Source of the DNA: Gracilaria domingensis | Lineage: Eukaryota > Rhodophyta > Florideophyceae > Gracilariales > Gracilariaceae | Assembly: GCA_022539475.1 (NCBI GenBank) | Contig: VCMS01000425.1 | Coordinates: forward strand, 1-34,256 | Length of the DNA: 34,256 bases | Direction of reading: 5' to 3' | Part shown: positions 7,907 to 34,256 of the stretch, piece by piece | How positions within the stretch are numbered: position 1 is the stretch's first letter | Layout: each line of letters starts with the position of its first letter | Translations under genes and position numbers: made by a program | Notes under the pieces: generated by a model | Told to the model about the DNA's origin: nothing | Databases searched by the model: none | Seen by the model: the letters and a program-made list of their open reading frames with translations, nothing else

Positions 7907-9120
7907 TTAGTTGTGGAGAATTGTTGGACAACGCGAGAATGTAGTATGGGCAGTGCGTAGATGTTTTTTAACAGAATCGATACTACCAAGGGTATGAAGA
8001 AGGGCAATATTGTTGTGGGTCTGATGGTGTTGGAGATCAAATTGCAAGGCAGGTTTGTAGCACTCAAGCGCCTTGTGCATATTTCCAAGTTCCTTTTGCA
8101 CGACTTCTAGATTGTTATGAGCCTCAGTTAGACGTGGGTTAAATTGGTCAGCAAGATTTTACGGGAGGAGAGCACGTTCCAACTTTCCAGTTTCGGCGTA
8201 GAGAACACCAAGGTCGTAGTGAACATCGGAAACCAGGGCTGGAGGGCAAGAACGCGCTTAGAGATCTTTTTTGCTAGCTGAGTATCAACAGTTTCGCCTA
8301 TTAGAACCCTTGGCGGAGAGAGTGAGAGCGAGATTGCTATGGCCAGTTTGTAGTTAGAATTGCAGGAAGAACCCTTCTCAGAGGGGCGCATGGAAAGATC
8401 GGGGGCTCCAGCGTTTCATTGCAGCACGCCGAGATTGCAACATGCTTCGACGTGCGAGGTGTTGTGCTGCAGCTACTCCTTGTTGTACATTCGGGCCTTT
8501 CCAGTGTGCGAGGTGTCTGCACGTGCGATGGCCGTATTGTAAATTTCCTTCGGATACATCTGGAGGGCCTCGAAGTAGTGCTGGACTTCGTCAGCAAGAA
8601 GGTTAGCCATCTTCAAGAGCACGTCCTCATCGGTGAGCAGTGCGGCCAACTGCAACGCCAGCGACGTTTCACCGCACCAGGGCAAAACCGTGATGGCTCG
8701 TCTAACGAGGCGCAACGCCTCTGGCAGCTGCACGAGGTTGAAGGACAAAATGGTGGCCAGTGCCTACAGCGCGGACACCGAGTCGGGCGCGATGCGCGGC
8801 GCGCGCCACAGCGTCTCCTCGGCGTCGGCAACGGCACGAGCTGCACCGACGCCAGCTGACCAAGCAGGGGCGCATAATGCGCGTGATGGGACTGCAGAAC
8901 GGACAGCGCGGTGGTGACAGCGTGCTCCACGGCGGGATGGCGGCCGCACGCGTACAGGAAGGCAGCCTGCGAGAGCAGGGCGTCGTTGAACGGCGCGGGG
9001 GGCGCTTGGGGGGGCGGCGGCGGCGACGCCGGGCGCGGCAGGGCGAGGCGGCAAAGCGGTCATGGCGTGGGTGCAACCAGCGGGCGCGGTGGTGAGCAGG
9101 TGGCGCGTGGCCCGCGCCAT
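7907..9120 (-). pseudogene. TPR-repeat protein, SPINDLY/OGT-like, heavily disrupted
   Basis: Minus-strand frames, read in order, give a tetratricopeptide protein. The N-terminus starts at the ATG ending at 9120 (MARATRHLL...). The middle helical portion is at about 8930-8473 (DSVSAL, LVRRAITVLPW, LADEVQHYFEAL). The C-terminal TPRs are at about 8250-7907, with DVHYDLGVLYAETGKLERAL, then LTEAHNNL, ELGNMHKALECY and HHQTHNNIALLHTLG. The NNL...A..CY..AL pattern is the TPR consensus of the SPINDLY/O-GlcNAc-transferase group, which act on nuclear and cytoplasmic proteins. The catalytic glycosyltransferase domain is not present downstream. The coding sense changes frame at least at about 8240, 8470, 8760 and 8880 and contains in-frame stops, including one after LERALLP, so it cannot make a product. 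The family call rests on the TPR portion only. Confidence 0.6.
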
Positions 9121-9345
9121 TGACGAGGGCGCGCGCGTTTAGAGCGCAATGCTCCGGCGAAGCAGGGCGTCGATGAACGGCGCGGGGCGCGCTTGGGGGG
9201 ACGGCGGCGGCCACGCGGGGCGCGGTGGGGCGAGGTGGCAAAGCGGTCATGGCGTGGGCGCGACCAGTGGGCGCGGCGGTGAGCAAGTGGCGCGTGGCGC
9301 GCGCCATTGACGTGAGCGCGCGCGTTTAAAGCGCACAGCGCTCCC
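8974..9345. repeat. 187-bp tandem duplication covering the TPR gene 5' end
   Basis: A GC-rich unit of 187 bp occurs twice head-to-tail (AGCAGGGCGTCG at 8974 and again at 9161). Copies match closely, with scattered substitutions. Each copy includes on the minus strand the same start region: an ATG ending at 9120 or 9307 encoding MARATRHLLT followed by HAMTALPPRP. The presumptive start codon and first codons of the TPR gene were therefore duplicated. Confidence 0.8.
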
Positions 9346-18010: not shown

Positions 18011-19052
18011 GGGTTCTTGGGCCTATACTATAGGTTAGGGGTTGTAGCTTCTATAGTATGTGTGGTTTTGGTTTTGATTTTTGGGCGAGTTGGTGGTGAT
18101 TTGGACCCGCGTGCAGCAGTGGTTGACGCTTGGTTGTGATTTTGTAGTAGTGGTTGCGCGTGTGGTTTGGGTGCGGCGTGCGGCGGCGCGCGCACGCCGC
18201 TGTGGCGCTGTGGCGGCGCGTGAGGTGCGTGTTTGAATTTAAAGACATGCATGGTTGTGAAATTTTGAAACGGGCGAACGTTGTGATTTACGGGAGGGAG
18301 GGCGCTGCAAGAGTGTGTGTAGATGTGTATTTGGCAGATTTTAGATGAAGCGAAAGAAAGCTTGGTGGTTGGTGGTGGCGTGATGCAGTACGTAATGACG
18401 ATTGAATGTTTGTGATTTACGAATGCCGATTTGGTGAATTGCGATCTATGATTTGTGTGATTGCTGATATGTGCTGGGATTGATGATTTGTGTGACTGAT
18501 TTTGTAATTTATGTTTTGTGTTTTTTGTGTTTTGTATTCATGTAATATTAGAGTGGTTCGTGTTTTTGCTTTAATAGTTGTAGCGCGACTGAAAGATTTG
18601 TGAAATGAAGATTTCTAATCTACGTATTGTGTGTGATTTGTACTCTAACGTATTTTGTGTTATTTAAATTTATGTTTTTACATTATGTTCTTGATTTAAT
18701 TTTGGGTGACTAGATGTGAATGTGAAGCTGTCATTTGAGCATATTTGTAGATTTCGATTTCCCATTTGCAGATCTGAACAGATTTGATTGATTTGTGATT
18801 TGCAAATTTGATTGATTTGTGATGTGCAGATTTCAATGATTTGTGATTTTGTAGATTTTTGATTTGTAGATTTTCTTTTTGGCTTTTTTTGGTCCAAACC
18901 TCTGGGCAGCCTCTCGAATTACCACAAGGTGCATCGGATCCCGAGGGCCTAGGACCTGCTGAAGGAATCGGTTTGATTTGTGATGTGCAAATTTGATTGA
19001 TTTGTTATGTGCAGATTTGTGATTTGTAGATTTTCTTTTTGGCTTTTTTGAG
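18011..19052. repeat. T/G-rich zone with degenerate GATTTG repeats
   Basis: From the BRCT stop to the truncated end of the retroelement the plus strand is strikingly rich in T and G, with motifs such as GATTTGTGAT, GATTTGCAAATTTG and TTGATTGATTTGTGAT recurring at irregular spacing, densest at 18770-18870 and 18970-19045. The phrase GATTTGTAGATTTTCTTTTT plus GGCTTTTTT occurs twice, ending near 18888 and 19050. Between these lies a non-repeat island (about 18890-18965) that on the minus strand reads DPMHLVVIREAAQRFG and may be a scrap of other coding DNA. No gene is supported. Confidence 0.7.
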
Positions 19053-19964
19053 GTAAGACGGACCCGATAATTTGTTTCTTCACCAGACATTGCTCAGAAT
19101 GGCCAAAGTTGGCGATTAGCACCTTAAAGAGTTCATCTGGATTGATAGTAACGATTCCGTTAGCAACCCCTAGTTGTTTCTCGGCAACGAGGGTAGACAG
19201 AGGTTGCACATTGTGCAACCCTACCTGTTTAGAAGAGACGGGTACCCATACTTGGGATTCCGATGGTATCCGAACGGATTGAGCGATTCTGAGTTTCGTT
19301 GAGACCGGTTTCGGTGTCGGCGCTTCTTGAGCGACAGGCAAGAGGACACGCTTACGCGAAGCGTTCTGAAATGTCTTCCGCACTATCGGAACCGACGAGT
19401 CATCAAACATTTCTACGGTTCGGGCCCTGGGGCGTATAGCTTCCACGAAGCGATCACAAAAGTCACAACCCAGAATAACGGGTGCTGCAAGTGCCTTGCA
19501 GACAACGAAATACAACTGCACCAAGCCAAGTAAGTTCCAAGTCTCACCACGAGAGATGGGTGGCCCACTGTGCGTATCCGACGGTTATTCGCCTCTGCGA
19601 TATCCAAGTCTGGGCCGTAGCGAATGTGTTCCCGAAGTGCGGGCGGTATCAACGCGGTGTGAATCAGATTGGGCGCAGCCCCTGTATCCAAGACGGATAA
19701 TTGGCGTACCATGTACTGGTTTGATAAGCTTAAGTCGGCGTATACTTTGTAATTCCGCTTAGCCATTATCATGACCCGATCCGGGTTTCGCAAATTGCGG
19801 GAGCGAATCCACGATCGATGCAACACTCCAAGGAGTTTCGAGTCAGCATCTGTATCAGCAACTCTCCTGGATAGGATTCGAATTGCCGGGGAGCGAAGCG
19901 GTGACGCCTCAGACGTCCTCTGTTTCGACTCAAAAGACGCCCCTTCCGTATGGGAGACTCCCAA
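19053..19964 (-). pseudogene. Retrotransposon protease and linker, frameshifted
   Basis: A retropepsin-like aspartic protease that would cut the gag-pol polyprotein. The active-site loop is VLDTGAAPNLI (DTGA at 19677-19688). It is followed by a flap-like segment (EANNRRIRTVG), then in the next frame from about 19524 PVILGCDFCDRF, the hydrophobic-hydrophobic-Gly motif that ends retropepsin domains. A serine/proline-rich linker (QVWVPVSSK, NGIVTINPDELFKVLIANFG) stops at about 19060, where reverse transcriptase should begin. The frame change near 19510 breaks the active enzyme. The protease frame differs from the gag frame and overlaps it by about 35 nt (19930-19964), so an active relative may use ribosomal frameshifting. 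Confidence 0.8.
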
Positions 19965-22077
19965 ATCTAGTTTTTCTGGGCAGTCTCGACCGCCGGTTGC
20001 GGTTCATTCCCACCTCGGGGCTCCAAAGAACCCCCTTCGCCAGTCTCGGGTCCTTTAACCCATGATTGGGGTGTGCGCCTGCTGCAGGTTGAGGCTGCTG
20101 TTGCCGTCCATACTTGGCTTTGGCATCCTCATATGAGGCAGATGGCACCCGTTCCCGTTCTTCCGGGGTCAAAGACTCGTTCTGTACGATTACTTTCGGC
20201 ATCTCCCTCAAGGGAAACGAGCACTGAGGTGAAATATGCCCGTGTTGATAACACACGTGACATATCAGCGACACCAATCTGTCCAGCGAACGGGGCGCAG
20301 CCGGTCGTTGAGGTCGAGTATCCCGCCAGCCTGGCCGTGCAAACCGAGTGTGGTTGCTGGCATAGGCCAGTGATGGCGCAATAACCTTAGAGTTCCCCAT
20401 GTACCTCACAGGGTCCGTCTCCATGGTTTCCCCTGTAGTGGTTGAAGGTAGCCCCGAAGTTCCTACGGAATTAGGATTTGCCGCAAACTGGACCTGATCA
20501 TAATCCACAGGTGGACGGTTATCCTGTAACAGGGAGAGAGATGAGTCAGATCCTTCAGCCAGGAAGGCCTTCGTGGGCCTGTGTGTTGGCTTCCGTTTCG
20601 CTCGGAAGGTATCTCCCTCAGTCTGGGCGTAGTGAACCAGTTCCAAGTAGGAGATCTTCCTGTTTTGATCCCGACAACGGGATACTAGTGCCTGGATGCC
20701 GGGGTCCAATCCTTCCACAAACATTGTGCACCTCTCAGCTGAGGAATAAACATTACCGTAACGGTGAAACGCTTTGTTCAAGCGCGTTGATTAACTCGTT
20801 TCTGTTTCCCCCGAATTCTGCTTTGTCGCCCGTAGGGCCAGAGTAACGTCTGGGATCGCATTGCTACTGGCATACGACCTCAATAGGTAATAAACGGCTT
20901 CGGGCCAACACGTGACACCGCCTTCAGAGGCTCTTGCTGATCCACGCACGGAGTGAAATTGGTCTTCGGCCATCTCCTTTAGGAAATATGGGAGGGCCAC
21001 ATACGCCTGTGCTTCACTCATACAGAGTATGTCCGCTTCCTGAACGAAGCGTGCAAGGAAATCCATCACCATAATTGGGTGGTCACCACTGAACTCTTTC
21101 TTCTGTAGAGTAATCTGAATTCGGCGGATGTAATCCTTCACTAGCCCCGTTCCATGGGCATTGCGTTCACCTGAGGCGTTCTGTAACCGATAATAACGGT
21201 ATGAAAGCAGTTTCCGGTACAACGGACTCGACGGTTTTAACTCCCTGAGTCCCTTATGTCTCTTTCCCTTAGCACGGGAGCGAATGGCCTCTTGGGTGAC
21301 AAAGGTCGCTTTAGAGCGCGTTGATCGAGACCGACGTCGGTGACTGCCTTCAATATCCGACGAGGATGAAGAAGATGACGAGATACCCGACGATTCGGTG
21401 GAGGAGTCAGGATCTGACGAGTCCGAATATGCGTGAACCTCCCTTTTAGACTTCCGGGATTTGCGCTTCATCGAGCGGTGAGCGGAGCCTTCTGAGGCGA
21501 TTGGGTCATCTTTGGCCGCAGCCTCATCCATACGGATAGTAGCCTCTAGATTTTCCAAACGACTCTGTAAGCGAGTGGCGCTCACCCGAGCTTCTTCAAT
21601 AAAAGCAGCATACTCCGCTGCGAACACAGCGGGTTCTCCAAGACACTCCAAAATAGAGTTCACATCCTTACGCAGGAGTCGAATGTCTGCCGAGTAATCC
21701 CTAACAGGGGCATCGTCGAGACGACGGCGAAGTTCGGTTTGTTGTTTAAGAAGATCCACGAGGGAGATGTTGATGACACTCAATCGTGAGTCTAATAAGG
21801 TGTACTCACCCGAGTCCAGCGCTTCGGGGCGGGCTGCCTGTGAGGGTGTTTCCACCACCGGTGTAGGCTCCACAGAAAGAGGTTCCATGACCGGTATCGG
21901 TACTCTAGAAAGCTCTTGCGGTACGGAAACGGCTGAGGGTGCATTCCGACCATTCGGATCGCCATCGATATCTCCCGTCTCGGTAACAGACCTACGGAAG
22001 CGCGGGACAGCAAGAGGTGCTGTTCCACTCCTTTGAACTGACCTGTTGCGAGAGTTTCCACGTGACGGGGGAGGCAT
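19930..22077 (-). pseudogene. Retrotransposon gag with CCHC zinc knuckle, one in-frame stop
   Basis: Capsid/nucleocapsid polyprotein. The ATG at 22077 is the first in frame after the primer-binding site. The N-terminal third is proline/serine-rich, followed by coiled-coil-like helices (SVINISLVDLLKQQTELRRRL) and a serine-rich acidic stretch next to basic KR clusters. A retrotransposon-gag capsid segment (VMDFLARFVQEADILCMSE, YVALPYFLKEMAEDQF, then FHRYGNVYSSAERCTMFVEG) comes next, and then a zinc knuckle CHVCYQHGHISPQC (20221-20262, CX2CX4HX4C). A TAA at 20791-20793 splits the frame between the two capsid halves, yet both sides stay in the same frame, so a point mutation rather than an indel disabled it. 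The total of about 715 codons is long for a gag. Confidence 0.8.
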
Positions 22078-22242
22078 TCTGCAGATATGCGTCCCACGTA
22101 CCGAGAGGTTACCAAACACAACCAAACACTTCCGGAATGCGAAGTAGCGGTCAGCTCTACTCGATAAGGGTCCTTCCAACCACCACGGTGGGTACTTCCA
22201 CTTTTGAACCAACCTGAAAAGGTGATATTCCCGAGATTCGAC

Positions 22243-22260
22243 TTCTAGGTAGGGAGACCA
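22243..22260 (-). other. Retrotransposon primer-binding site
   Basis: Two bases past the LTR end the minus strand reads TGGTCTCCCTACCTAGAA. It begins with TGG, complementary to the CCA end of a tRNA, as expected for a minus-strand primer. The matching tRNA would end GGTAGGGAGACCA; I cannot name its amino acid from this window. Confidence 0.6.
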
Positions 22261-22262
22261 CT

Positions 22263-23245
22263 TGTGGTGCAAACTCAGGACCGGTCAAACACGCACAGGA
22301 TGTCCGAAGTCCTGCTCCCTTGGGGATGGTAACTCGGTGGACGAGCCTTTGTTGACACCGGGGACCTGGGTGCAAGACCAGTAGTGTACTGAGGATAACC
22401 TACAGAGGTGAATGCAGAAAGTCGAATATCCGGAGAATCACCAGCCAAGGACGGTGTAGAAGCGAGAAATACCCGAAAAAGGGTGAGCCAGACGCTCCGG
22501 GAGGAGGCGTAGCCCAAGAAACAAGGGAAGAAGAGATACTTCCAAAGAGGAGACGCAGGCCGTGCACACGCAGGCAACAGGCCCGACGTCGGGAAGAAAG
22601 AGCAAGAAATAACCCAATACTGGGGCGGAGATCTGTTCTGCAATCAGGAATTAATAGAAATAGTAAACGTCAATACCACACGGTATATACAGATTCCTTC
22701 GGCGTCCCAAGGGGAGTACGCGTACTTATACCTCTTGAGGTGACCCTCCGGGTGGAGTAGTACACCGGCAAGGGCAGTAGCGCCTAGGGCCCACACTCAA
22801 GATGAGTCTCAAGTGCCCTCTGATCCGAGTGGCAGTTCTCGAAGAAGAGGCTTGGTTGCTTTACCATCAGATGGTGTTCAACCGCCCCTGCACCTCTAAG
22901 TACCCCAAGTGCAGGGCCGGTTGATCGATCACAATAGTACACGCCCGTACGGGTGGTACACGTACGCAAGCCCACTGTAAGGGTGCAGAAAATAAAGACA
23001 AACTAAAATATTCCCCAAAATGCTTCACTTGTGCACTAGCCATCCACCTTCACGTGTCCACGTCTGACCAGGGCCCTTGGCACATCCACGCCCCTCTACG
23101 GGTGCTAATTAAGATTAAACTAACCAACGGTTGAAGACTCCCATAGGGGATGCATTCATAATGTCAAGTGCCACATGCACGGGCGCATCGCTCATGTATG
23201 AAGAGCTTCTTCGTCAAAAACCCTCAGAATCGGGTTTGCTCCACA
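22263..23245 (-). repeat. 5' LTR of the retrotransposon (983 bp)
   Basis: Homologous end-to-end to the solo LTR at 1632-2627. In element orientation it starts TGTGGAGCAAAC and ends GTTTGCACCACA. A TATATA motif at about 22683-22688 is conserved with the solo copy (2064-2070) and is the best core promoter candidate on the minus strand. The base sequence just outside the right end (GTTTT) has no partner because the left end of the element is lost. Confidence 0.88.
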
Positions 23246-23552
23246 GTTTTTTACGCAGAATCTACCTTGCGTGTGGCCAGGAGGCGCCGCACTACAAGCA
23301 GGGCGACATGAGATTGTCTACTTAAGTGGCAGAGAGCGCTCCGACGCTGACCACCCGACCTCATCGGCTGTCAATTGCCAAATTCGTGGTCACCCACGGG
23401 AGGCGCCTGCGCTTGCGCAAGTACACGTGAATTCCACGCTGTGTACCGCGTTGCGTAGGCGCCTCTTGTGGCGGCATATGCGCTAAAAGCATCCACCACC
23501 TACGCCTCTTATAGGCTAGTACGGTAGATACAACGCATCCATTGGCCAAGCC

Positions 23553-24217: not shown

Positions 24218-24505
24218 AGTAAGTTGTTCTCAGCTGCTCTTTTGGCATTTTATGTGACTACTGACTTCTTGTTTGTTTCACATCAAGTGCCAACGTCTTT
24301 CGTCTCATCCAGCGAGTATTCGTCCGTGGTTGACCCGGACGAGCGTCTAGAAGAAGTCCCCGATTCCGTTCCGCAGATAAAGAAGTCGGCTATGCAGCCT
24401 CTTGACGGAACACGCGAGCGCCATTTCTTTCGCGTAGCCACTCAGAAGGAGCGTCTGTGTTCTGCAAAGTGGAATATTGTCTGTTCGCTTTGGAAATTAA
24501 GCTAG
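24218..24505 (+). CDS. Short ORF whose ATG would be created by splicing (72 aa)
   Basis: The leader ends ...TTCAAGA then GTAAGT (24219). A 69-nt candidate intron runs to CATCAAG (24287), with CTGAC and a pyrimidine run as branch point and tract. Joining A24218 to TG at 24288 makes ATG followed by 71 codons to a TAG: MPTSFVSSSEYSSVVDPDE..., acidic then basic (QKERL, RERHFFRV), ending SLWKLS. I recognise no family. The layout of promoter, long pyrimidine-rich leader, intron and short ORF next to an LTR suggests the beginning of a gene or mobile element whose body is missing. The frame without splicing starts at a non-consensus ATG at 24224 inside the intron. The splice signals are good matches, but the ORF is short. 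Confidence 0.35.
   Translation, partial: SKLFSAALLAFYVTTDFLFVSHQVPTSFVSSSEYSSVVDPDERLEEVPDSVPQIKKSAMQPLDGTRERHFFRVATQKERLCSAKWNIVCSLWKLS
24219..24287 (+). other. Proposed 69-nt intron forming a start codon
   Basis: 5' GTAAGT, branch-like CTGAC about 25 nt before the 3' end, pyrimidine-rich TTCTTGTTTGTTTCAC and terminal AAG. The length agrees with the other small introns proposed in this window. Confidence 0.45.
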
Positions 24506-24993
24506 TTTCTGGGCTATCTGGAGCGCGCGAGGGGGTGGCAGAGGCTGGCACTCAAAAAATTAAGAAATTTTGGAATATTAAATTCCATCCCTTGCAGGTT
24601 AATGTTGGGGTCTCCTAGTTTTTGTAGAGGTTCTACTTCGCCACACCACCCCATCCACTCTTTTCCGCGACCCTCTCCCAAATCTGCGCTTGTGCTAGTT
24701 TGCGTTTTCAATTTTCGTTGTGTTGGGATGCAAATCGCATCTCATCCCAGCTCAATGATCCCACCGTTCCTTCCCATCCAAATCGGCCTCATTTTTTACT
24801 CAATGTTTGCCAGTCACGCTTTCGGATCCTCCCTCCCCGTCTCCCCAACAGTTATTTTGTAAAAGCACGGGTGGCAACGCTCCCCAACCCCGTACACCTC
24901 CGTCGCCCAAAAACGGCCTCCCTTTCTTTCTCATCCTTCTCTCCTCCTGCAACCTCAGAATCCAGTCCATCATCTGCAGCGCCATGCCCTACT
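24506..24993. other. Gene-free stretch
   Basis: C/T-rich on the plus strand with an AT-rich palindromic patch near 24570-24590 (TGGAAT...ATTCCA). No frame with family resemblance; the minus-strand frames here may be the decayed continuation of the gene at 24994-25446, but that cannot be shown. Confidence 0.3.
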
Positions 24994-25446
24994 CTAAAAT
25001 TCATTCAAAACTGGAGCCCCGATGGCCTCCTGCGGTACCTCTTCCATCACCTTCCTCTTTTCCTTACGCGTCTTTTTCAGAAAACTCTTCTTGTCCTCGA
25101 ACCTACCACCCTTTGTCTTCGGTGTCACAAATGACCGCTTCTGTGCCGCAACACTTCTCGCACGTCCCATCTCTGCCTCTCCTTCCATATCAAATTTCAA
25201 CCTCCCCTCTTCCACCAACCCTTGCCTCCTGCCGAACTCTTCCGCCACCTTCTCCACCACGTCGATCAGTTTCTTAGGGACCATATTCTCCTCGTGCAAC
25301 TGTTCATGGTCGCTTCCCGCACAATATAATATGCAATACACATTACATTTCATCTCCATCCGTTTTACCGGCAAAGAACAGCGCAGGATCAATATCCCTT
25401 CAACAAAAAACTCACTACTAGCCCCATTCAGCAGCACGCCGCCCAT
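24994..25446 (-). CDS. Hypothetical protein, beta-rich start then charged helices (150 aa)
   Basis: The first ATG in the frame is at 25446 (MGGVLLNGASSEFFVEG). The N-terminal 60 residues alternate hydrophobic strands and cysteines (ILILRCSLPV, CNVYCILYCAG). A helix follows (KLIDVVEKVAEEFGRR), then a lysine/glutamate/arginine-rich segment to residue 150 and the stop. The strand-then-helix start followed by a charged linker is reminiscent of longin-like or SRX domains such as the N-terminus of SRP receptor alpha, but the conserved core cannot be matched well, so I make no functional call. Coding bias and a meaningful secondary-structure pattern are the case for a gene; it could be a first exon, or its 3' part could be lost downstream. 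Confidence 0.35.
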   Translation of the reverse strand: MGGVLLNGASSEFFVEGILILRCSLPVKRMEMKCNVYCILYCAGSDHEQLHEENMVPKKLIDVVEKVAEEFGRRQGLVEEGRLKFDMEGEAEMGRARSVAAQKRSFVTPKTKGGRFEDKKSFLKKTRKEKRKVMEEVPQEAIGAPVLNEF

Positions 25447-25836
25447 TTCACTCACACTCCCGACGATGCAATAGTATAATAACAAGCCCGAACAGCCCTA
25501 CACTTGCCTTTATTTTTGTTGCCAAAAAGAATCTCTCTGTATTTTTGCTTCAATCTCCAAATAGTCTTCAATCTTTAACTTGTCGGCAAACAACACAAAA
25601 GTTTTTGTAGCTCTGGAAAGGAAACACAGGATCCCAGAATTTCCACAGGACTTCGAGCAAGAGAGACCGGTGCAAGCAACGACGCGGGTCGTGCGCTGTG
25701 ACAGTAGTTTACTGATGCGGATAGATGTTCCACCAGTAGACGTTGGCAGTAGATAGAACGGTCAGCGACGCTAAGTAGTGCTGCAGCCCGGGAAAACTCT
25801 TCTAAAATAAACAAATATCGATGTCCAAGTGATGGC

Positions 25837-26280
25837 CTATATCGACAAGAAAAGATGCAACATCGACACGCTGTACAAATCCCTTAGCTGTATCGCTCTC
25901 GTACCTTCTATTATGACAACCTCTACCTTCGGTTTTACCTCTGTCTTTACTCCATCACCATTTGTTCTCTTCTTTGCAAATATACGTTCTTCATCTATCA
26001 CTTGCTTGTCGTATGACATCTGAACCGCCTTCGCAATGGCTTTATATGCGCCTTTCTGCCGTCCAATGGCGTAGGGAGCTTACCATTCCTAGCGTATTCG
26101 TTGCACGTATTTAAAACAGAGAGCACCCACCAAATCGATAAGGTCCATGCCATAAGCTGCAAGCAAAACCTTTTGAGCTATTCGACCTTCTGATCTTGTT
26201 TCATGCTTTCTCGTCACCTGAATTTGTCCCCTTTTTCTTATCGGAGTTCTTATCGGATGCTCTCCTGTACAATTCTCCAT
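25837..26280 (-). CDS. Possible Alba-like small nucleic-acid-binding protein, two exons
   Basis: The first exon 26280-26131 starts with ATG (MENCTGEHPIRTPIRKRGQI) and the second, 26055-25837, ends at a stop. A 75-nt intron between them (GTGGGT...CAG) keeps the frame and gives 122 residues. The joined order of strand (QIQVT), helix (RIAQKVLLAAYG), strand (DLIDL), helix (KGAYKAIAKAVQMSYDK), strand (DEERIFAKKR) and strand (KPKVEVVI) is the Alba fold, and GAYKAIAKAV resembles the G-x-AI-x-KAV signature. Alba proteins bind RNA and DNA and include RNase P/MRP subunits. The intron has no clear branch point, and the family resemblance is by pattern, so the alternative is a frame-broken or unrelated gene. 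Confidence 0.33.
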
Positions 26281-27548
26281 CTTTCACTAGTTAGTGCCCA
26301 CTAATTATCTTTCTACAATATCATTAAATAGTTTTTTAACCACCTTGCCTTGACCTAGATTACTCTCTCATCGAACGATGAAAACACTTTAAAGCTGCCT
26401 TCAGTGATTCACAATTCTCTTTCAAGTTTTGCAAGACAGCTTTGTTTCTTCTCACTGGTCGTTGTTTCCGAGAGCGCCATGCAATAGTTGTTAATTGTTG
26501 TTATGACATATGCATCAGCTATAGGATCGTTAGAAACATGGTTGGCGAATGTTGATTGCTGGTCAAGCGTGAAGGATGAGTGGTAACGGCGGAATGGGGA
26601 GGATTGTAAAGCAGAAATGTTTGGCTGTGCCCTAAAGCAGCTGTGAACTGTTTCAGGCGATTTATTATATATGTCTGTTCTACAGTTGAATGAAGACTTC
26701 AATCATTCGTGCCGTTATGAAAGGTTTATGATAGAGTTGGTTGTTGTGTTTTTAGAAGACGTATACACGCAGAGATTGGAATTCAATTGAGCAGGACGAT
26801 GCAAGTAGCTGCAGATTGTTTTTGTTTTGTGTAGCAGAGACATGGTTTACATGTGATGAATTGCGGGATATAAGTAGTGCGACAGGGACGAGCTCCTGTG
26901 CGCTTGCTCTCGTGAAAAGCACGGCAAGCACAATAGCTCGGATGCTGTATGGCAGTTAAAAGTGGAGTGTTATAGTTTTACTTCTGGCTTGAATTTTGAA
27001 ATGAAACTCAACGACGCTTATAAGAGCGAAGATTTCGAGCACTGGAGTCTTTTTCAAAAGCACAGAGAAGAACTCGCAAGAGCGTAGAGTTACCACTGCG
27101 CACGACCAACGTTGGTGCTCTTCACTTGCCAAATGCGGGCAAGAGCGAAATGTACGTGCACGCACCGACGCGCACCTGTACACATCTTGTACTGAAAAGG
27201 GGACGAAAGAGAGGCAGCACAGCTACGCCACGTGCGCGCCACCCGCACAGCGCCGCTGTGCGCTCGGAAACAATCTATCAAACAGCGCCCATTCGCATCG
27301 GCGGTCTCGCTCGCCGCGCGCTCGCGAGCTGCTCATCGCTGCCAGCCGAACGCCATGGGCGCCGCCTCCTCAATGCACGCCCCACGCCGCCGCGTGGGAG
27401 CCTAACATTTTGCAAGTGCAGAGAGTCACCGGCCTGTACCGCGCCGCGCTGCGCACGTCGCGCGACTGAACCATTGACTACTGCATGTGAGTCAAGGAGT
27501 GCGGGCAGATTCAGCAGCGCTTTCCAGCCAACGCTTGCGGAGAATGGT
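26281..27548. other. Gene-poor stretch
   Basis: AT-rich to balanced DNA with a minus-strand frame (26702-26409, about 97 codons) that has no recognisable family. GC rises from about 27200. Open frames at 27126-27548 are arginine-rich and compositional, though one continues in frame into the spliced ORF that follows. Confidence 0.3.
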
Positions 27549-27785
27549 ATGGAGGAGCTTTTTAGTATGAGACATCCGGATCCTTACATTCCGATCTATA
27601 AGCCGGGCTCTTCTAGCTATCAACAAAATGTGCCGCCGCCTCCGGAGGTATGTTTTGCCTTTTGACTGCGCGCCGCTGCCGTCCTCATTGCGTGCTGCTG
27701 CTAACTCGCTTGCGTTCGATTCTGTGTCACTGTTTTGTTAGCTTACCCACAGTTCATGCCCCCACCGCATGAAGCAATTCAGTAG
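27549..27785 (+). CDS. Short proline-rich ORF with a candidate intron (43 aa)
   Basis: The ATG at 27549 begins MEELFSMRHPDPYIPIY, then a serine/glutamine stretch and NVPPPPE. Right after the GAG codon comes GTATGT (27648), a textbook 5' splice site. CTAAC at 27701-27705 could be the branch point, and CAG at 27752 the acceptor, giving a 105-nt intron; joining adds FMPPPHEAIQ and a TAG. The alternative acceptor TTAG at 27741 gives a 94-nt intron and a different tail. I do not recognise the peptide; the frame is also open upstream to 27126, so the N-terminus could be longer. The proline-rich halves joining in register favour splicing at 27752. Confidence 0.4.
27648..27752 (+). other. Candidate spliceosomal intron (105 nt)
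   Basis: GTATGT donor, CTAAC branch motif 47 nt before the end, pyrimidine-rich stretch (GTGTCACTGTTTTG) and CAG acceptor. It is the best-looking set of splice signals in the window and shows that yeast-like GTATGT/CTAAC signals occur here. Confidence 0.5.
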
Positions 27786-27934
27786 TTCCGTACCAAAGAT
27801 TCAACGGTAGATCAAGACCAAAGTGCTTCATCAACGTTTTTGTCATCTTGTACACATCATCTTTGACCACACCATCCCCCGCCGCTTCCCCTCTGCGAAT
27901 CCCCGCGAAGCTCTTGAAAAAACAAAAACCACAA

Positions 27935-29340
27935 TCATTGGTGCTAGATCTTCAACAGCTTATCCTTGCGCGCAGGAACAGCTCTCTTCCCATCCGTACT
28001 CCAATTCACCGTGAACACCTCATCACTATGTCCAGGCAGATCCATCTTCAATTTCTTCGTCCCCATATCCCAAACCTTGCAGGTACTATCCTTCGAACCA
28101 CTCATCAACAACCGTCTATCCGCCGACCAAACCACTCCATTCACGGCCGCAACATGCCCGCGGAACGTGAAGCAAAAATTGCCAGTCTTGGCATTCCAAA
28201 GTCTCACACTCTTATCAAACTGGCCGACGCGATATAATGTCCATACGGACTTAACGCCACGCAGTTGACCGGCTGCTGATGGCCGGTCATGTGCGAAATG
28301 GGCTGTATGCCCTCAGAGTAAAATCATCAGAACCACTTACCCTAAGTTCCTTCTTGCCCGTACTTTGCATCTTCATCTTTTCAAAGCGCTCCAACGCTTC
28401 TTCTTGCGACAACTTGACCGGCGTGTATCCGTTCTGCTCGTCCAGAGATGCAAACGCATCGCATATGAGCACGTAGTTGGTAGAAACCGTGATGGAATTC
28501 ACCGAGTGAGCATGTGCATTTATAGTAGGCACAGGATGGCCCGTATCATACCGGCCATCCTGTGTCTACTGATGATCAGCACTCCAGATCTTTATACTAC
28601 GATCTTGAGAAGCAGAATAAATAGAACCGTCTCCACTCTACCCAGCAGTCGTGACGGCGGTAGTATGTCCCGCGATCATCTTGACCGCGCTCATGCTAGC
28701 CCCGTTCCAAACTTCGACGTTGCATCTTTCGAAGCAGACACAACCAAACAACATCGTTCATCCAAATGATACGGCTTCCAACACAAATCTGCCACCCATT
28801 TGCGATAGGAAGCCAAGCTCTTACCCGTTCCCTTCTCAACGTCCCAGATCCACACCCGACCTTCCTTCGAAGCAGAAGCCCATCGACTCCCCTCTGGGGA
28901 TAACCCCAACGCCAGCACCCAATCGCGATGATCGATAAAAGAAAGCTTCGGCAACTACGCCTTCGCACTTCACAATCTGACGCTAGTATCGCCAGACCCC
29001 GTCGCTATCAAACGACAATCCGGCGAGAAAACACGTCACCAAAACCGCCTCCTTGTGTCCCGGTAAGCTTGAACTACACCTCAAAACAGACTACATGCGA
29101 AACAACAACAGCGGCACAAATTCCAGCTGCGCCACGCTCTCTCTCACATGCGAAGCAGCCTTCAAAGTGGCTTCCAAGCTTCGGTCACTGGCTTGCGCGA
29201 AGATCGCAGAAAGAATTCATACGGCAACGGCGTGTCATTGTTCAGAAGGTGGTTGAGGAATCCCGCGAGCTGCTTGGGCGCGGAACCAGGTCTTACGTCA
29301 AAGACAGCGCGTAGGGGGTCGACCTCTTGCGAGAAAAGCT
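27935..29340 (-). pseudogene. Notchless (NLE1/Rsa4) WD40 protein, multiply disrupted
   Basis: Notchless is a WD40 adaptor that helps the AAA ATPase midasin remodel pre-60S ribosomes. Minus-strand pieces follow the whole protein: NLE domain (FDVRPGSAPKQLAGFLNHLL, TPLPYEFF), link to the propeller (SVAQLEFVPLLLF, SLPGHKEAVL), blades with SPDCRLIATGSGDTSVRL, HRDWVLALGLSPEG, ASKEGRVWIWD, RKWVADLCW, SIYSASQDRSIKIW, HAHSVNSITVSTNYVL, RVSGSDDFTL, KSVRLWNAKTG, FRGHVAAVNGVVWSADRRLL, KDSTCKVWD and LPGHSDEVFTVNW. In-frame stops occur at 29091-29093, 28970-28972, 28955-28957, 28638-28640, 28566-28568 and 27944-27946. Single-base frameshifts occur at about 28710, 28320 and 28220 and one in the NLE domain near 29215. 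The TAG at 27944-27946 is where the family ends in IW; the sequence then reads H-Q-stop. The start codon is not identified. Confidence 0.9.
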
Positions 29341-32300
29341 GCACGAGTGGGCTTGAATGCGCGCGCGGCGCGTCGTCGGCGCCATCCGACTGCACCGCGC
29401 GCCGCCCAACCCGGCGAAGAGGACGGCGCAGAAGCAGACGCAGTATGGAAGACTCAACGACGACGACGCCGTGCACATGGCAAGTGACGCGTGTATTCGA
29501 GCAGGCATTCACAGCCGTAGCGGCCCCAGCCTGTGGCTCACTTGCCGCGGAGGCGTCTCGCGACACCTCCTCCAGCCGACTATTGGTGATGATCGCAACC
29601 GCCCATTTACGTGCTGACCTTCGCAGTCCGCCATCATCTGCCGATGCCGCGCCGCTGTCACGCGACGCGTCGCACCCTCAAGGTGTGCGTGCGGCCGCTC
29701 GCAATGAAGGCGACGTACTTCCTCCCGCCGCTTCCGTCGCTTCGGACCGGGCGTTCTCACGCCACCATGCACGCTCTCCGTCGCATCGCGCTCATTCCCC
29801 CCAGCCCCGCACGCCGTGCCTGCCTGTAGAGCGCCGCGACCGCTCATGCTGCCGGCGCTCACCGACGCGTTGCGCGACGCGCAGCTCACGTTGGCGATTT
29901 TCGGCGCCGTCAGGCTGTCGCTGGGCGTCTGGCAACGGGTAACAGCGCCTGAGCTGGTTTCCTCGCGCACGACGAAGGAAGATTATCCACATCAGTTGTG
30001 GGCCACATTTCCTTGCATTTTGACCACTGTATAGCGCGATCACCCACGCGCATCTGTGTGCTGCCTGCTTGCCGCTGCTGTTCTTCTCTGTGCTTGTAGT
30101 GTCTGGCTTGTCGTCGCACGAGCGACAGCACTACGACCGGTTGCCGTGAGCCTGTTGCGCATGTGCGATCGATTCGTCGCGCACGGTCTATGCTCTCCTC
30201 AGACAGAGCCTCGAACCGTGATCCAGCGTGATTCGCAGGCGACACAACAAGGCTACGTCCTTCTTGGAGGCGCCCTGAGCCAGCCTGGCGTCGGCGTCGG
30301 CCCCCATCGGCGCCGTTGTGAACGGCAGCGCATTAAGTTCGTTTCTCGCCTTGTTTAGCGGGCTAGCAATGCCCGACAGCTGCACCAAGCAGGTGTTGAT
30401 CGCCACGCCGCGAACGCGCCAGCGGCGACGGCGTGAGCGGCATGGTCTGCAAAGGCAAGCTGTCCGTGGTGAAAAACACGCTGCGCAGCAGCAGCGGCTT
30501 GTCCGACGCGTCCGATGAAGACGCGCTGCATGGCGGCGACGAAGATGGCGACAGCGAGCGGCTGGACGGCGTGCGCACGGGCGACACGGAGTACGGCGAG
30601 TCAAGCTGTGCGCGCGAGCGCGCTCGAGCTTGCGCGGGAGGGCGAGACGGTGAGTGCGAGGCGCTTGCAGAGAAGGGGGAGGAGAAGGAGATTGAAAGAA
30701 TGATGACGGGCGAGGAAGAGAAGCTGAGGGAGGGAGAGGAGGGCGCGTTTATTGACGGCGACGGGGGCACGCAGTGCATGTTGCGGAGGATGTGGCTCGC
30801 GACGCAAGGCGAAACAGCGGCACGCGCGGGCAGCGTTGGCGCGTTAGCATGGAGCGCCAAGTGGGCGGGTGCGTGTGGGGGCTGGGGGGGCGGCGTCGGA
30901 AAGCTGCGGACAGGCGAGAGTGGCGGCGCGCTACGCAGCGCAAGCTCAACAAGTTAGTGCGCAGCATTTCAGTGGGAGAAATTCCACTTGCTTTCAGTCG
31001 CGCCTTGCTGCCCTCATTGGTATACAAAGGTATTGCACCAGTACCAACCAACTGTGTACAAAAACGCGTGTGCGGCTATTTACATCATGTCTACAGACGT
31101 TGCTCTCCCTTAAACAGTTTGTATTGTTGCTGTGTTATTCACAGACACTACGTTAGCGTTTGACTGCCCCCGCGCGCGGCCATGTACATGCTTTCAGATA
31201 CATTATGCACGAGCGAGGTTCTTGTAGCGGCGCAGCTGCCACTGACGTACAATGTTCCACCCAGCCCCCATGTTGTACTCCTCCCCCGCGCCGAACTCAC
31301 TCCCCGCCTCAGTCTTCATCTCCACTTGTTCCTTCAGGTGCACCACTCGCTCGCCTTTCATTTGCTCCTGCCGCACGTCTCCAGCGTCATTCTCATCGCT
31401 GCTATCAGCACCCTCAGTCTAGTACGCAGAGCACGCGATTGTTTAAGCCTGCAGCGGCGGCCCTGGAGACGAAAATTGTGATGGCGACGGACTTCACATT
31501 GAACAGCGAGAGAGCGGCTGCAGGTTCCTGACACATGTAATCAAAGCGCAACAAGAGGGTATTTCTGAGGGTGGTGCCCTGCGTGCCGCCCATCGCGCCA
31601 AGCGCCCAAGATGCAACATCCACAGTCCGGTTGCCACACGTCAGCAACTGTGGAGAGCAGCGGTGTTCGCGACAGATTCAGCGGCGGCCGGCGCGACAGA
31701 CGCATCAGTTGCTTGCGATATAGCTCCGTGCCGTCTGACATGACGGCGCGACATACGGGCAATAGTTTGGACGCGGGCATCACCGCGGGGACCATAGCGA
31801 GTGCAGCGGCGGAGGCGAGATCGGGAACTGAGACCATGAAGACGGCAGCAGCTGGTTCGATGTGGCACAGCGGCGTCATAGCAGGCGGCACGCAGCCCGC
31901 CGGCCGTGGTCTTGGCAAGATTAGTCACCAGCACACCGCCTCTGTCGTCGCGTTGACACACCGCGCGCGGCCATGAGTGCGCGTGGTTCGAATGGCCGGC
32001 GAACAGCGCGACAGCGATGATGTCTGCCCCGGCGCGCGCGCCCAGCCGCGTCGCGTGGCTCTTTGTGTCTGGTGGTCTTGAGCTCGCGAGCGGCGCGCGG
32101 TGCGCGACAAGCCAGTAGTGCGCAAGTTGGCCGCGCTGCGGCGCCGAGAAAAGGAGGGGTGGCAGCCCTCGAAATCCACAAAGCCGCGGATTGCACTTCT
32201 AGCACAAGCCTGGATCTTACGGTGTCGATGCGCTGATCCATGCAGCCCGGCGACGGTAGCAGAGCCGAGAGATGGCAGAGAGGCTCGTCATGCAGCGCAG

Positions 32301-32530
32301 CGACGAGAAAGAGCGCGGTGACGAAGGCGGCTGGCTACGGCGGTCAAGGAGGGACGATAAAGGCGAAGAATATGCCGACAGTGGCGGTGAAACCATGATC
32401 ATATGCAAATCGCACGGGTACGGCGGCGGTATGAGCGCAATCGTAAGCGAAGCATGCAGCGACGGCGGCCGTGGTGTATACGACCAAGAGCAGAGAACAC
32501 GGCAATGGCGGCGGAGGTGGATCCACCAAG
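29341..32530. other. GC-rich region with open frames but no recognised gene
   Basis: Both strands are nearly stop-free over long runs because of high GC content, so frame length alone is not evidence. Two minus-strand patches look more like real protein. One is at about 30370-30190 (AINTCLVQLSGIASPLNKAR). The other is at about 32020-31560 across two frames (ADIIAVALFAGHSNHAHSW, GGVLVTNLAKTTAGGLRA, then AAAVFMVSVPDLASAAALAM, DGTELYRKQLMRLS, VADVWQPDCGCCILGAW), perhaps a beta-propeller-like decayed gene. I cannot assign either to a family. An acidic glutamate-rich plus-strand frame covers 30433-30957. Confidence 0.35.
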
Positions 32531-32531
32531 G

Positions 32532-32611
32532 TGCGGTAGCTGCGGCAGCGTGATCAAGATGCGGTACCTACGGCGGCGCGATCAAAGTGCGGTAGCTACG
32601 GCAGCGCTATT
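32532..32611. repeat. 28-bp tandem repeat, about three copies
   Basis: TGCGGTAGCTGCGGCAGC... starts at 32532, 32560 and 32588 with a 28-bp period; copies differ by a few bases and the third is partial. The period is not a multiple of three. The array lies about 220 bp before the palindrome group. Confidence 0.75.
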
Positions 32612-32831
32612 GGGGAGCGGTAGCAAAACTAAATCATAAAGAACGCCGCAGAGACCAGCATCGCGAGAGGACAGCGACGCGAGTTCTACGGCGCAACGAC
32701 GCACCGCCTGCAGGAATGGCGCCGCGCGCTTCATGGGCGGCGCGGAGGTTTGCTGGCGATGGGTTGTTGCAGGCGGGTGTCATCAGATATGTCGTAATGT
32801 CATTCTGTCGTATTGGCAGCGCGCGAGATCA

Positions 32832-32863
32832 AGTTGTGTTAGGGTCGCTACCCTAACACAACT
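32832..32863. repeat. Palindrome unit 1 (14-bp arms, 4-nt centre)
   Basis: AGTTGTGTTAGGGT (32832-32845) is exactly complementary to ACCCTAACACAACT (32850-32863) around CGCT. It carries the same GTGTTAGGGT...ACCCTAACAC core as the three larger units and is followed by GCCCGCGGGCACG (32874-32886), the outer-arm motif of the others. Its left outer arm is missing, so it seems to be a truncated unit. Confidence 0.9.
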
Positions 32864-32962
32864 CGACCGCCCTGCCCGCGGGCACGTTACGTTTTGGCTG
32901 GATATGCGTGCGGTGTGTGTTTTGGGAGGTCTGTGGACGCTACCAGAATGAGGCGAAAACGA

Positions 32963-33034
32963 GCCCGCGGGCGGGGGGGGTCGGTCGTGTTAGGGTAGGT
33001 ACCCTAACACGACCGGACCCCCCCGCCCGCGGGC
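32963..33034. repeat. Palindrome unit 2 (72 bp)
   Basis: It begins GCCCGCGGGC and ends GCCCGCGGGC. Arms of about 35 bp pair with two mismatches around the central TAGGGTAGGTACCCTA. Between the ends each arm holds a run of seven or eight G (or C) and a unit-specific box (CGGTC / GACCG). Confidence 0.9.
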
Positions 33035-33071
33035 ATGAAATCGCACATTTTTGAAAAAATCGGCCAAAACG

Positions 33072-33145
33072 TGCCCGCGGGCGGGGGGGTCCGTTCGTGT
33101 TAGGGTAGCTACCCTAACACGAACGGACCCCCCCGCCCGCGGGCA
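33072..33145. repeat. Palindrome unit 3 (74 bp, perfect, no loop)
   Basis: The two 37-bp halves (33072-33108 and 33109-33145) are exact reverse complements with no spacer, centred on TAGGGTAGCTACCCTA. The unit-specific box is CCGTTC / GAACGG. Confidence 0.95.
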
Positions 33146-33180
33146 TAAAAAAGCACATTTTTTAAAAAACCGGCCAAAAC

Positions 33181-33258
33181 GTGCCCGCGGACGGGGGGGT
33201 GCGGTTGTGTTAGGGTAGCCACCCTAACACAACCGATCCCCCCCACGCCGGCGGGCAC
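33181..33258. repeat. Palindrome unit 4 (78 bp)
   Basis: The inner arms GCGGTTGTGTTAGGGT and ACCCTAACACAACCG pair (apart from the outermost base), and the outer arms GTGCCCGCGG... and ...GCGGGCAC pair with a few mismatches and a small length difference. The unit-specific box is CGGTT / AACCG. Confidence 0.88.
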
Positions 33259-33300
33259 GTTCTGGTCACATTTTCGCACCATGCCGAGACCTCCCAAAAC

Positions 33301-34256
33301 CCCTTCCTCAACACTTTTTGCACTCATTACCATGCACCCGCCCGCGAACACGTTGGCACCGCTGTCTACGTAGATTGGCGGGATGGCAAAAAGCTGTACA
33401 TTAATTAGAGTATATCTTGAGTATTAGGAGCGCTTCAAAACGCATGAATGGAGAGCGCTGCCATTGTTCGCATAAATCTACGTCCACCAAAACCCTTTGC
33501 TAGAAGGAACATTTTGAGGCCATTCTGTAGCGTTTTGATACCTCCCAAAACCCAATCGGTTGCATTCCTTGCAACGATTTTGTTGCGAGCTCAGTACAGA
33601 TCTTTTAGAGATAAATCAACTAGTTTTTTCATCCAATTGATGCTCAACCAGTAACACAATACGCGACCTTGTTACAATTTGTGTAGTTTCTGACACACTA
33701 CACTATTTAAACTGATCAAAGTGGCGAAGAGACGTACCACCGAAGCGCGCCAACACCCTCACGCACAAAAGTGGTAATGCGCCGGGATGAGATGCATAAA
33801 AAAACAGAGTGACGACAGTATGTAGCTACTTAAATACTCGCCACCACTTTTTCCGGTGAAGATACAAATTCTACCGATGATGAAGATAAGGTATTATATA
33901 ATAGCATGAGCGCTTCCGCTCTAGCGTTCAATTTATATATCTGAATCTAATTTGTTCGTTGTGACGGTCTGACAAACAGCGATGAAGGCCTCCAACGACC
34001 ATATAATACCGGATTTATAGGGGTAATAGAGCGAGCTCTCTGCGAAACACCATAAATAACTAAATGGAGTCCTGATAGGCTAACTACTACATTATTTTCA
34101 GAGGTTTAGAGAACGGGGTTTGTAGCAGCTCTTATATGCTAAATTCATTCAGTATAAAACTCTATGAAACAGAATGGCGACGAGAGTCGTCGCGGAAAGC
34201 AAAACAGATGGTAGGCATGAAAACCGTTCACGCCCTGTGGTGCTTCGAGCTGGTAG
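33301..34256. other. AT-rich gene-free right end
   Basis: Composition drops to AT-rich after the palindrome group. No conserved frame is visible; short plus-strand frames such as 33448-33654 have no family resemblance. One spaced inverted repeat is recorded separately. Confidence 0.4.
33890..34010. repeat. 10-bp spaced inverted repeat GGTATTATAT / ATATAATACC
   Basis: GGTATTATAT (33890-33899) and ATATAATACC (34001-34010) are exact complements about 100 bp apart. In AT-rich DNA a match of this length can arise by chance. It could be the ends of a tiny MITE-like insertion or of a folded RNA. Confidence 0.4.

What the first reader, a model, noticed from the sequence alone, without database searches (positions are those of the whole stretch)
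32832..33258. Group of large palindromes with compensatory arm changes and a shared TAGGGT core
Four consecutive palindromes share GTGTTAGGGT...ACCCTAACAC at the centre. Units 2, 3 and 4 also share GCCCGCGGGC-like outer ends and a G7-8/C7 tract, and their centres are about 110 bp apart. Unit 3 is a perfect 74-bp palindrome with no loop. The inner boxes differ between units (CGGTC, CCGTTC, CGGTT, with unit 1 ending AGTTG), yet each is matched by its own complement on the other arm. Independent mutation would break pairing, so either pairing is selected (cruciform DNA or hairpin RNA) or the arms of each unit correct each other by intra-palindrome gene conversion. The centre also resembles a telomere-type TTAGGG motif facing its inverse. 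I know no named element with this architecture; it could be a replication or recombination site, a dimeric-protein binding array, a MITE family, or a source of small hairpin RNAs.
Basis: partly seen in the sequence, partly recalled or inferred. Interest (0 to 1): 0.88.

Follow-up and report, generated by a model that had tools for sequence, protein, structure and literature searches.

The report
Central palindrome array of red-alga transposon
The palindromes are real and form a conserved, usually central landmark of a young, many-copy jumping gene in a seaweed genome, probably a cluster of protein docking sites rather than an unknown stand-alone element.

Summary
The palindromes are real: the core occurs 4 times here, 0 in shuffles. 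They are an internal array of a DNA-transposon family in a Gracilaria-type red alga: 573 left ends, 564 right ends and 1,646 palindromes in 77.9 Mb. Ends are CGTCTGT-type, with a 2-bp target duplication in 9 of 12 copies. Intact copies encode a 1,100-aa Plavaka-type transposase. In 37 of 38 paired elements carrying a listed palindrome, the array lies 38-63% of the way across.

The 'compensatory change' reading mostly fails. Arms match no better within a unit than after shuffling (66 units). Of 100 listed units, 16 changed on one arm only, 6 identically on both. Among related copies the inner 16 bp of each arm vary in 0 of 96 columns, against 28 of 252 in outer arms and spacers (p = 8e-5). That favours a sequence-specific dyad site over selected pairing, although box types differ between units. 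Matched box changes and centre flips fit template switching. Best reading: a cis-acting dyad-site array; the function is inferred.

The parts
24452..34256 (.). Part of the DNA transposon held in the window: from its left end to the contig end. The right end lies off the contig; in other copies it is 5.5-6.1 kb beyond the start of the array.
   Evidence: Common start of several copies at window 24452; alignments and ends in other copies.
24452..24466 (+). Left terminal inverted repeat CGTCTGTGTTCTGCA; its partner in other copies is TGCAAGAGACAGACG.
   Evidence: 573 left-end matches and 564 right-end matches in the genome.
27947..28565 (-). Cargo: two open runs (27947-28312 and 28290-28565) of a WD40-repeat gene fragment.
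   Evidence: Coordinates; PF00400 1.4e-16 for the 122-aa piece and a weak 0.043 for the 92-aa piece (translated from the C162 copy).
32829..32866 (.). Unit 1: short palindrome, box AGTTG, no G-tract arm on its left.
   Evidence: (I16).
32919..32980 (+). Left arm of the imperfect inverted repeat that brackets units 2-4 (overlaps the start of unit 2).
   Evidence: I5, 76%; alignment.
32963..33034 (.). Unit 2: box CGGTC on both arms, 3 unpaired positions.
   Evidence: (I9).
33072..33145 (.). Unit 3: box CGTTC on both arms, perfect 74-bp palindrome.
   Evidence: (I8).
33183..33254 (.). Unit 4: box CGGTT on both arms, imperfect outer arms.
   Evidence: (I12).
33239..33300 (-). Right arm of the bracketing inverted repeat (overlaps the end of unit 4).
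   Evidence: (I5).

Best explanation
SHOWN: the palindromes are an internal array, usually near the middle, of a young, high-copy DNA transposon family with a Plavaka-type transposase; among related copies the inner 16 bp of each arm are free of substitutions while outer arms and spacers vary. INFERRED: the array is a cluster of two-fold symmetric binding sites for a dimeric DNA-binding protein (element-encoded or host) that acts in cis, because copies with a truncated transposase frame keep it too. It may promote mobilisation, for instance by helping the distant ends to meet, or it may control the element's transcription. INFERRED: the rare matched changes on both arms and the flips of the central dinucleotide come from replication template switching between arms, not from selection for pairing.
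For: Transposon identity: ends and counts, 2-bp target duplication in 9 of 12 copies, p = 3e-9 at 1/16, PF18759 in 123 scored matches, 21 of them in a frame of exactly 1,100 aa (my count), 7.2e-19 for the C49 frame. Position: 37 of 38 elements with a listed palindrome at 0.38-0.63 of the length. Constraint: 0 of 96 columns variable at distances 3-18 against 28 of 252, p = 8e-5; core alone 0 of 60, p = 0.002. All 13 variable outer-arm columns are one-sided. Unit 1 has the dyad without the full outer arms. No further half-site with up to 1 mismatch in the window part of the element or in the fetched C162 stretch. Template switching is known to homogenise arms and invert spacers (PMC8604942, abstract and passages); centre AGGT 18, ACCT 4, AGCT 13 of 35 CGTTC units.
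Against: No binding protein is known and no binding, RNA or mobility data were available. The copies are related, so columns and positions are not independent events. In a broader set of 60 units the box at distances 13-17 departs from consensus in 46 of 600 cells (7.7%), more than the outer box (28 of 1,200, itself capped by the anchor rule); only the core, 11 of 1,200, is clearly the most conserved. The unit types were defined by that box, which favours the 0 of 96. On C2-C9, 2 of 13 paired elements show no exact core. One 6.4-kb copy has the array at 0.88 of its length.
Confidence: 0.42

Rival explanations
1. Passive palindromic minisatellite: the array hitchhikes in the transposon and its regularity is kept by unequal exchange and template switching, with no function.
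For: Unit number varies between related copies and one hybrid unit is seen in C100; centre flips; arms not matched within units beyond chance.
Against: Inner sites free of substitutions while outer arms and spacers vary; array present in elements of many lengths.
Confidence: 0.27
2. Structure is what counts: the palindromes are kept because they extrude cruciforms or hairpins in DNA.
For: Very strong single-strand fold (z = -22.6); perfect unit 3; matched box types CGGTC, CGTTC, CGGTT.
Against: Arm distance within units equals shuffled; 16 of 100 listed units with one-sided box changes; the commonest unit keeps unpaired positions (35 of 66 with GGTCGG against GTCCGG); all 13 variable outer-arm columns one-sided. 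The exact core is also kept across the box types.
Confidence: 0.12
3. The array is transcribed and makes hairpin RNA, small RNAs or a terminator next to the transposase gene.
For: In C16 the Plavaka match lies 2.8 kb and the array 5.2-5.8 kb inside the same end, and in C49 the frame reads inward from that end; strong fold.
Against: No Rfam family at gathering score; the pairing evidence above; no RNA data held.
Confidence: 0.08
4. The dyads are site-specific recombination sites that exchange cargo or resolve copies.
For: The left half differs between copies while the stretch from 137 bp left of unit 1 rightwards is shared; hybrid unit in C100; tyrosine recombinases accompany Plavaka giant repeats in Amoebidium (PMC11244446, passages).
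Against: PF00589 has 16 matches in this genome; of the 5 on contigs covered by my end lists none lies in a paired element, the other 11 could not be checked. The shared stretch starts 137 bp from unit 1, not at a dyad. Spacer orientation looks constant in the arrays I read.
Confidence: 0.08
5. Assembly artefact (fold-back).
For: None found.
Against: Many copies on different contigs with their own flanks and target duplications.
Confidence: 0.01

Closest known systems
Plavaka DNA transposons (CACTA/EnSpm-related; PMC12730594, passages seen)
   Same: PF18759 transposase; 2-bp target duplications as in PlavakaA; one C(2)C and one H(3)H motif in the right order in the 1,100-aa protein.
   Different: Ends are CGTCTGT..ACAGACG, not TGT..ACA or CATCA..TGATG; host is a red alga; a central palindrome array is not mentioned in the passages I saw.
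Plavaka giant repeats of Amoebidium (PMC11244446, passages seen)
   Same: Large repeats linked with a Plavaka transposase.
   Different: Those are gene clusters up to 50 kb with tyrosine recombinases; palindromes are not mentioned in its main text (0 occurrences).
Central strong gyrase site of phage Mu (PMC10052514, passages seen)
   Same: A special site in the middle of a long transposing element.
   Different: Bacterial gyrase site with proven need for efficient replication; here neither binding nor need is shown.
Template switching between inverted-repeat arms (PMC8604942, abstract and passages; PMC8794818, listing only)
   Same: Explains matched arm changes and inverted short centres.
   Different: A mutational process, not an element; does not explain the constraint on the inner sites.

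Membership tests
Plavaka transposon | Plavaka transposase domain | tested here: met
   PF18759 over the curated cut-off; 7.2e-19 for the C49 frame.
Plavaka transposon | 2-bp (PlavakaA) or 2-3-bp (PlavakaB) target duplication | tested here: met
   2 bp in 9 of 12 copies; C325, C516 and C420 do not match.
Plavaka transposon | Termini TGT..ACA or CATCA..TGATG | tested here: not met
   CGTCTGT..ACAGACG. So I call it Plavaka-type, not a member of PlavakaA or PlavakaB.
[quoted passage not shown]
   CHRC at residue 466 and HLLDH at 744, the only such strings in 1,100 aa; catalytic D and E not placed.
CACTA/EnSpm transposon | CAC..GTG ends and 3-bp target duplication | tested here: not met
   Ends and 2-bp duplication, 3 bp matched in 0 of 12.
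Independent MITE | Palindromes occur as insertions of their own, away from the large transposon | tested here: not met
   17 of 18 arrays on C2-C9 near a facing end; C9:452030 has no listed end near it.
Mu-like central site | Central position in the element | tested here: met
   37 of 38 elements with a listed palindrome at 0.38-0.63; copies are related.
Mu-like central site | Needed for efficient transposition; bound by a topoisomerase | not testable with these tools
   Needs experiments.

The most novel reading that the evidence does not exclude
A eukaryotic transposon that carries a centrally placed palindromic 'apex' array which helps its far-apart ends to meet, a functional counterpart of phage Mu's central gyrase site, kept near the middle while the element ranges from about 9 to 23 kb.
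Probability: 0.12. Interest if true: 0.85.

Novelty: new variant of a known kind. Interest (0 to 1): 0.5.

Why it matters
If the array works in cis, it would add a conserved internal part to the anatomy of large eukaryotic DNA transposons, where attention is mostly on the ends, and would make the question of how ends 10-20 kb apart find each other testable. The roughly 1,650 palindromes in over 500 young copies are also a natural data set for template switching between inverted-repeat arms.

Tried and rejected
Telomere link: (TTAGGG)4 has 0 matches in the assembly. Known structured RNA: no Rfam match at gathering score. Dyad in other collections: 0 exact matches in viral contigs and in genome contigs (records near this genome may be left out there). 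Relatives of the transposase in viral contigs: none confirmed. Tyrosine recombinase as cargo: not seen in the 5 of 16 matches that could be placed. Single half-sites elsewhere in the element: none with up to 1 mismatch in the two stretches examined. Protein search with the whole transposase: nothing; with residues 230-780: 75 proteins, none with an organism name shown. The two pieces of a second gene beside the C49 transposase have no Pfam match. Paper searches: nothing in the rows shown describes such an array by title or abstract start; only PMC12730594, PMC11244446, PMC10388701 and PMC12502185 among them were looked into, by passages. That is all the support for 'not found in print'.

Full report
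WHAT IS THERE. Four exact copies of the dyad core lie between 32836 and 33230 (0 in 100 shuffles). Unit 3 is a perfect 74-bp palindrome; units 2-4 form a 110-bp tandem array; unit 1 stands 151 bp before unit 2 and has only a short palindrome. Units 2-4 are bracketed by an imperfect inverted repeat, also seen around the array of a copy on contig C16.

WHERE IT SITS. The window is contig C425 of a 77.9-Mb assembly. An ABC-F gene in the window is 94% identical over 94% of its length to a protein of Gracilaria domingensis, 88% to one of Agarophyton chilense and 86% to one of Gracilariopsis chorda, so the host is a Gracilaria-type red alga; the species is not settled. The 427-bp region gave 617 candidates, of which 40 were scored. 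Alignments show a repeat of about 14 kb in this subfamily that starts at window 24452 and ends, in other copies, 5.5-6.1 kb beyond the start of the array. Its ends are CGTCTGTGTTCTGCA and TGCAAGAGACAGACG. Of 12 copies with both ends in hand 9 have a 2-bp target duplication; C325, C516 and C420 do not. With up to 2 mismatches there are 573 left ends (279+294) and 564 right ends (301+263); the core with up to 1 mismatch has 1,646 places. The control patterns gave 0 in each. A 32-mer beside the array, with up to 3 mismatches, marks 81 copies close to the window's. Copies compared with the window over 2.9 kb are 99.5-99.9% identical (seven), so the family has moved recently.

THE ENZYME. The window-type copy on C162 has a 431-aa frame with a Plavaka match at 5.5e-6; it lies beyond the end of the window contig. 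The copy on C49 has a 1,100-aa frame 2.0-5.3 kb inside the right end, with PF18759 at 7.2e-19 and single C(2)C and H(3)H strings. PF18759 gives 123 scored matches of 672 candidates, 21 in a frame of exactly 1,100 aa (my count). In six paired elements a match lies 2.4-3.6 kb inside the right end. Frames of 1,110 aa with another profile range also occur; their relation to this family was not tested. The C49 copy shows no core in the 6.5 kb fetched from its right end; its array, if any, lies further in.

POSITION OF THE ARRAY. From the first 100 listed right ends and first 100 listed left ends I paired 50 elements; 38 contain a listed palindrome. Measured from the right end, the array lies at 0.49 of the length on average (sd 0.09); 37 of 38 at 0.38-0.63 (8.9-22.8 kb), and one 6.4-kb copy at 0.88. 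The 12 others are not evidence of absence, since the lists are cut at 100 rows: two of them, C64:193643-205287 and C65:8070-17218, have the array. On C2-C9, where the exact-core list runs to C9:452030, 11 of 13 pairs have it and two (C5, 22.9 kb; C6, 21.3 kb) show none. Of 18 arrays there, 17 face an exact end within 13.5 kb, against 10.8% of positions on C2, C3, C5, C6, C8 and C9. Copies are related; 26 structures rounded by hand give 25 within 0.35-0.65. The left half differs between copies: C64, C32, C107 and C100 share with the window only the first 0.5 kb (84-85%), the last 137 bp before unit 1 and, in C64 and C32, a 0.6-kb block (82%).

ARM CHANGES. Of 74 distinct units held at that point, 66 have both outer boxes. 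Mean edit distance between the arms of one unit is 3.39, the same as after shuffling arms among all units (3.39, sd 0.12); for 61 units in loci with two or more it is 3.39 against 3.26 for arms of different units (p = 0.52). The commonest unit, 35 of 66, has GGTCGG on one arm and GTCCGG on the other. In 100 listed AGGT-centred units 77 have the consensus box on both arms, 16 a change on one arm, 6 the same change on both (all CGTTC), 1 different changes on both (the exceptions were typed from the listing and recounted). In 60 units anchored by the outer box, 9 differ from consensus on one arm and 18 on both, 16 of these identically; these are mostly the CGTTC and CGGTT types, inherited by related copies, so few events. 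Matched change is real but not the rule.

CONSTRAINT. Among 66 units of related arrays (16, 35 and 15 of three types; one hybrid unit and units with short flanks left out), no substitution occurs at distances 3-18 from the centre (0 of 96 columns), while outer arms have 13 of 114 and spacers 15 of 138 (columns counted by hand, indels left out; Fisher p = 8e-5, core alone p = 0.002). All 13 outer-arm columns are one-sided. The types were defined by the box at 13-17, which favours the result there; the core test is free of this. In the broader set the core departs from consensus in 11 of 1,200 cells, the box in 46 of 600 and the outer box in 28 of 1,200 (capped). So the core is kept everywhere, and the box is kept within a type but differs between types.

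FLIPS AND HYBRIDS. In CGTTC units the centre is AGGT 18, ACCT 4 and AGCT 13 of 35; ACCT is AGGT inverted and is seen in C27, C65 and C107. Unit 2, with imperfect arms, is AGGT in 23 of 23 arrays. In yeast genes, template switching homogenises arms and inverts spacers, the latter only with arms over 9 bp (PMC8604942, abstract and passages). C100 has a hybrid unit with arms of two types, which points to exchange between units. These are few events.

WORKING MODEL. Shown: a conserved, usually central dyad array inside a Plavaka-type transposon. Inferred: a dimeric protein binds it and the array is kept because moving copies need it or profit from it. In phage Mu a central gyrase site helps the ends to meet; its deletion delayed replication and the centre was the best position (PMC10052514, passages). 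Whether anything like this happens here is untested.

LIMITS. No reads, transcripts or binding data. The left half and the second gene of the longest elements remain unread.

Noticed in passing
window 19049-23248: A separate repeat of about 4.2 kb, with 16 other near-full places at 88-95% identity in the genome; frames on the minus strand without a Pfam match over cut-off.
   Followed up: no
window 27947-28565: A WD40-repeat gene fragment carried as cargo inside the transposon on the minus strand; the host source gene was not sought.
   Followed up: partly
window 32527-32607: A 28-bp tandem repeat (2.9 copies) about 220 bp before unit 1.
   Followed up: no
L009/L010, L013 and other copies, about 4.5-5.2 kb right of the array start: A tandem repeat with a period of about 373 bp near the right end of the element that varies in copy number between copies.
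   Followed up: no
L043 with L044 (C516, C200); L038 with L039 (C602, C241): Two pairs of copies share the same left flank, which suggests duplicated or allelic segments in the assembly.
   Followed up: no
L059:5380-6501 (C49): Coding-looking sequence on the opposite strand just past the transposase, apparently a convergent second gene; two pieces without Pfam match.
   Followed up: partly
window 8969-9335: A 187-bp unit repeated twice in tandem (90% matches).
   Followed up: no
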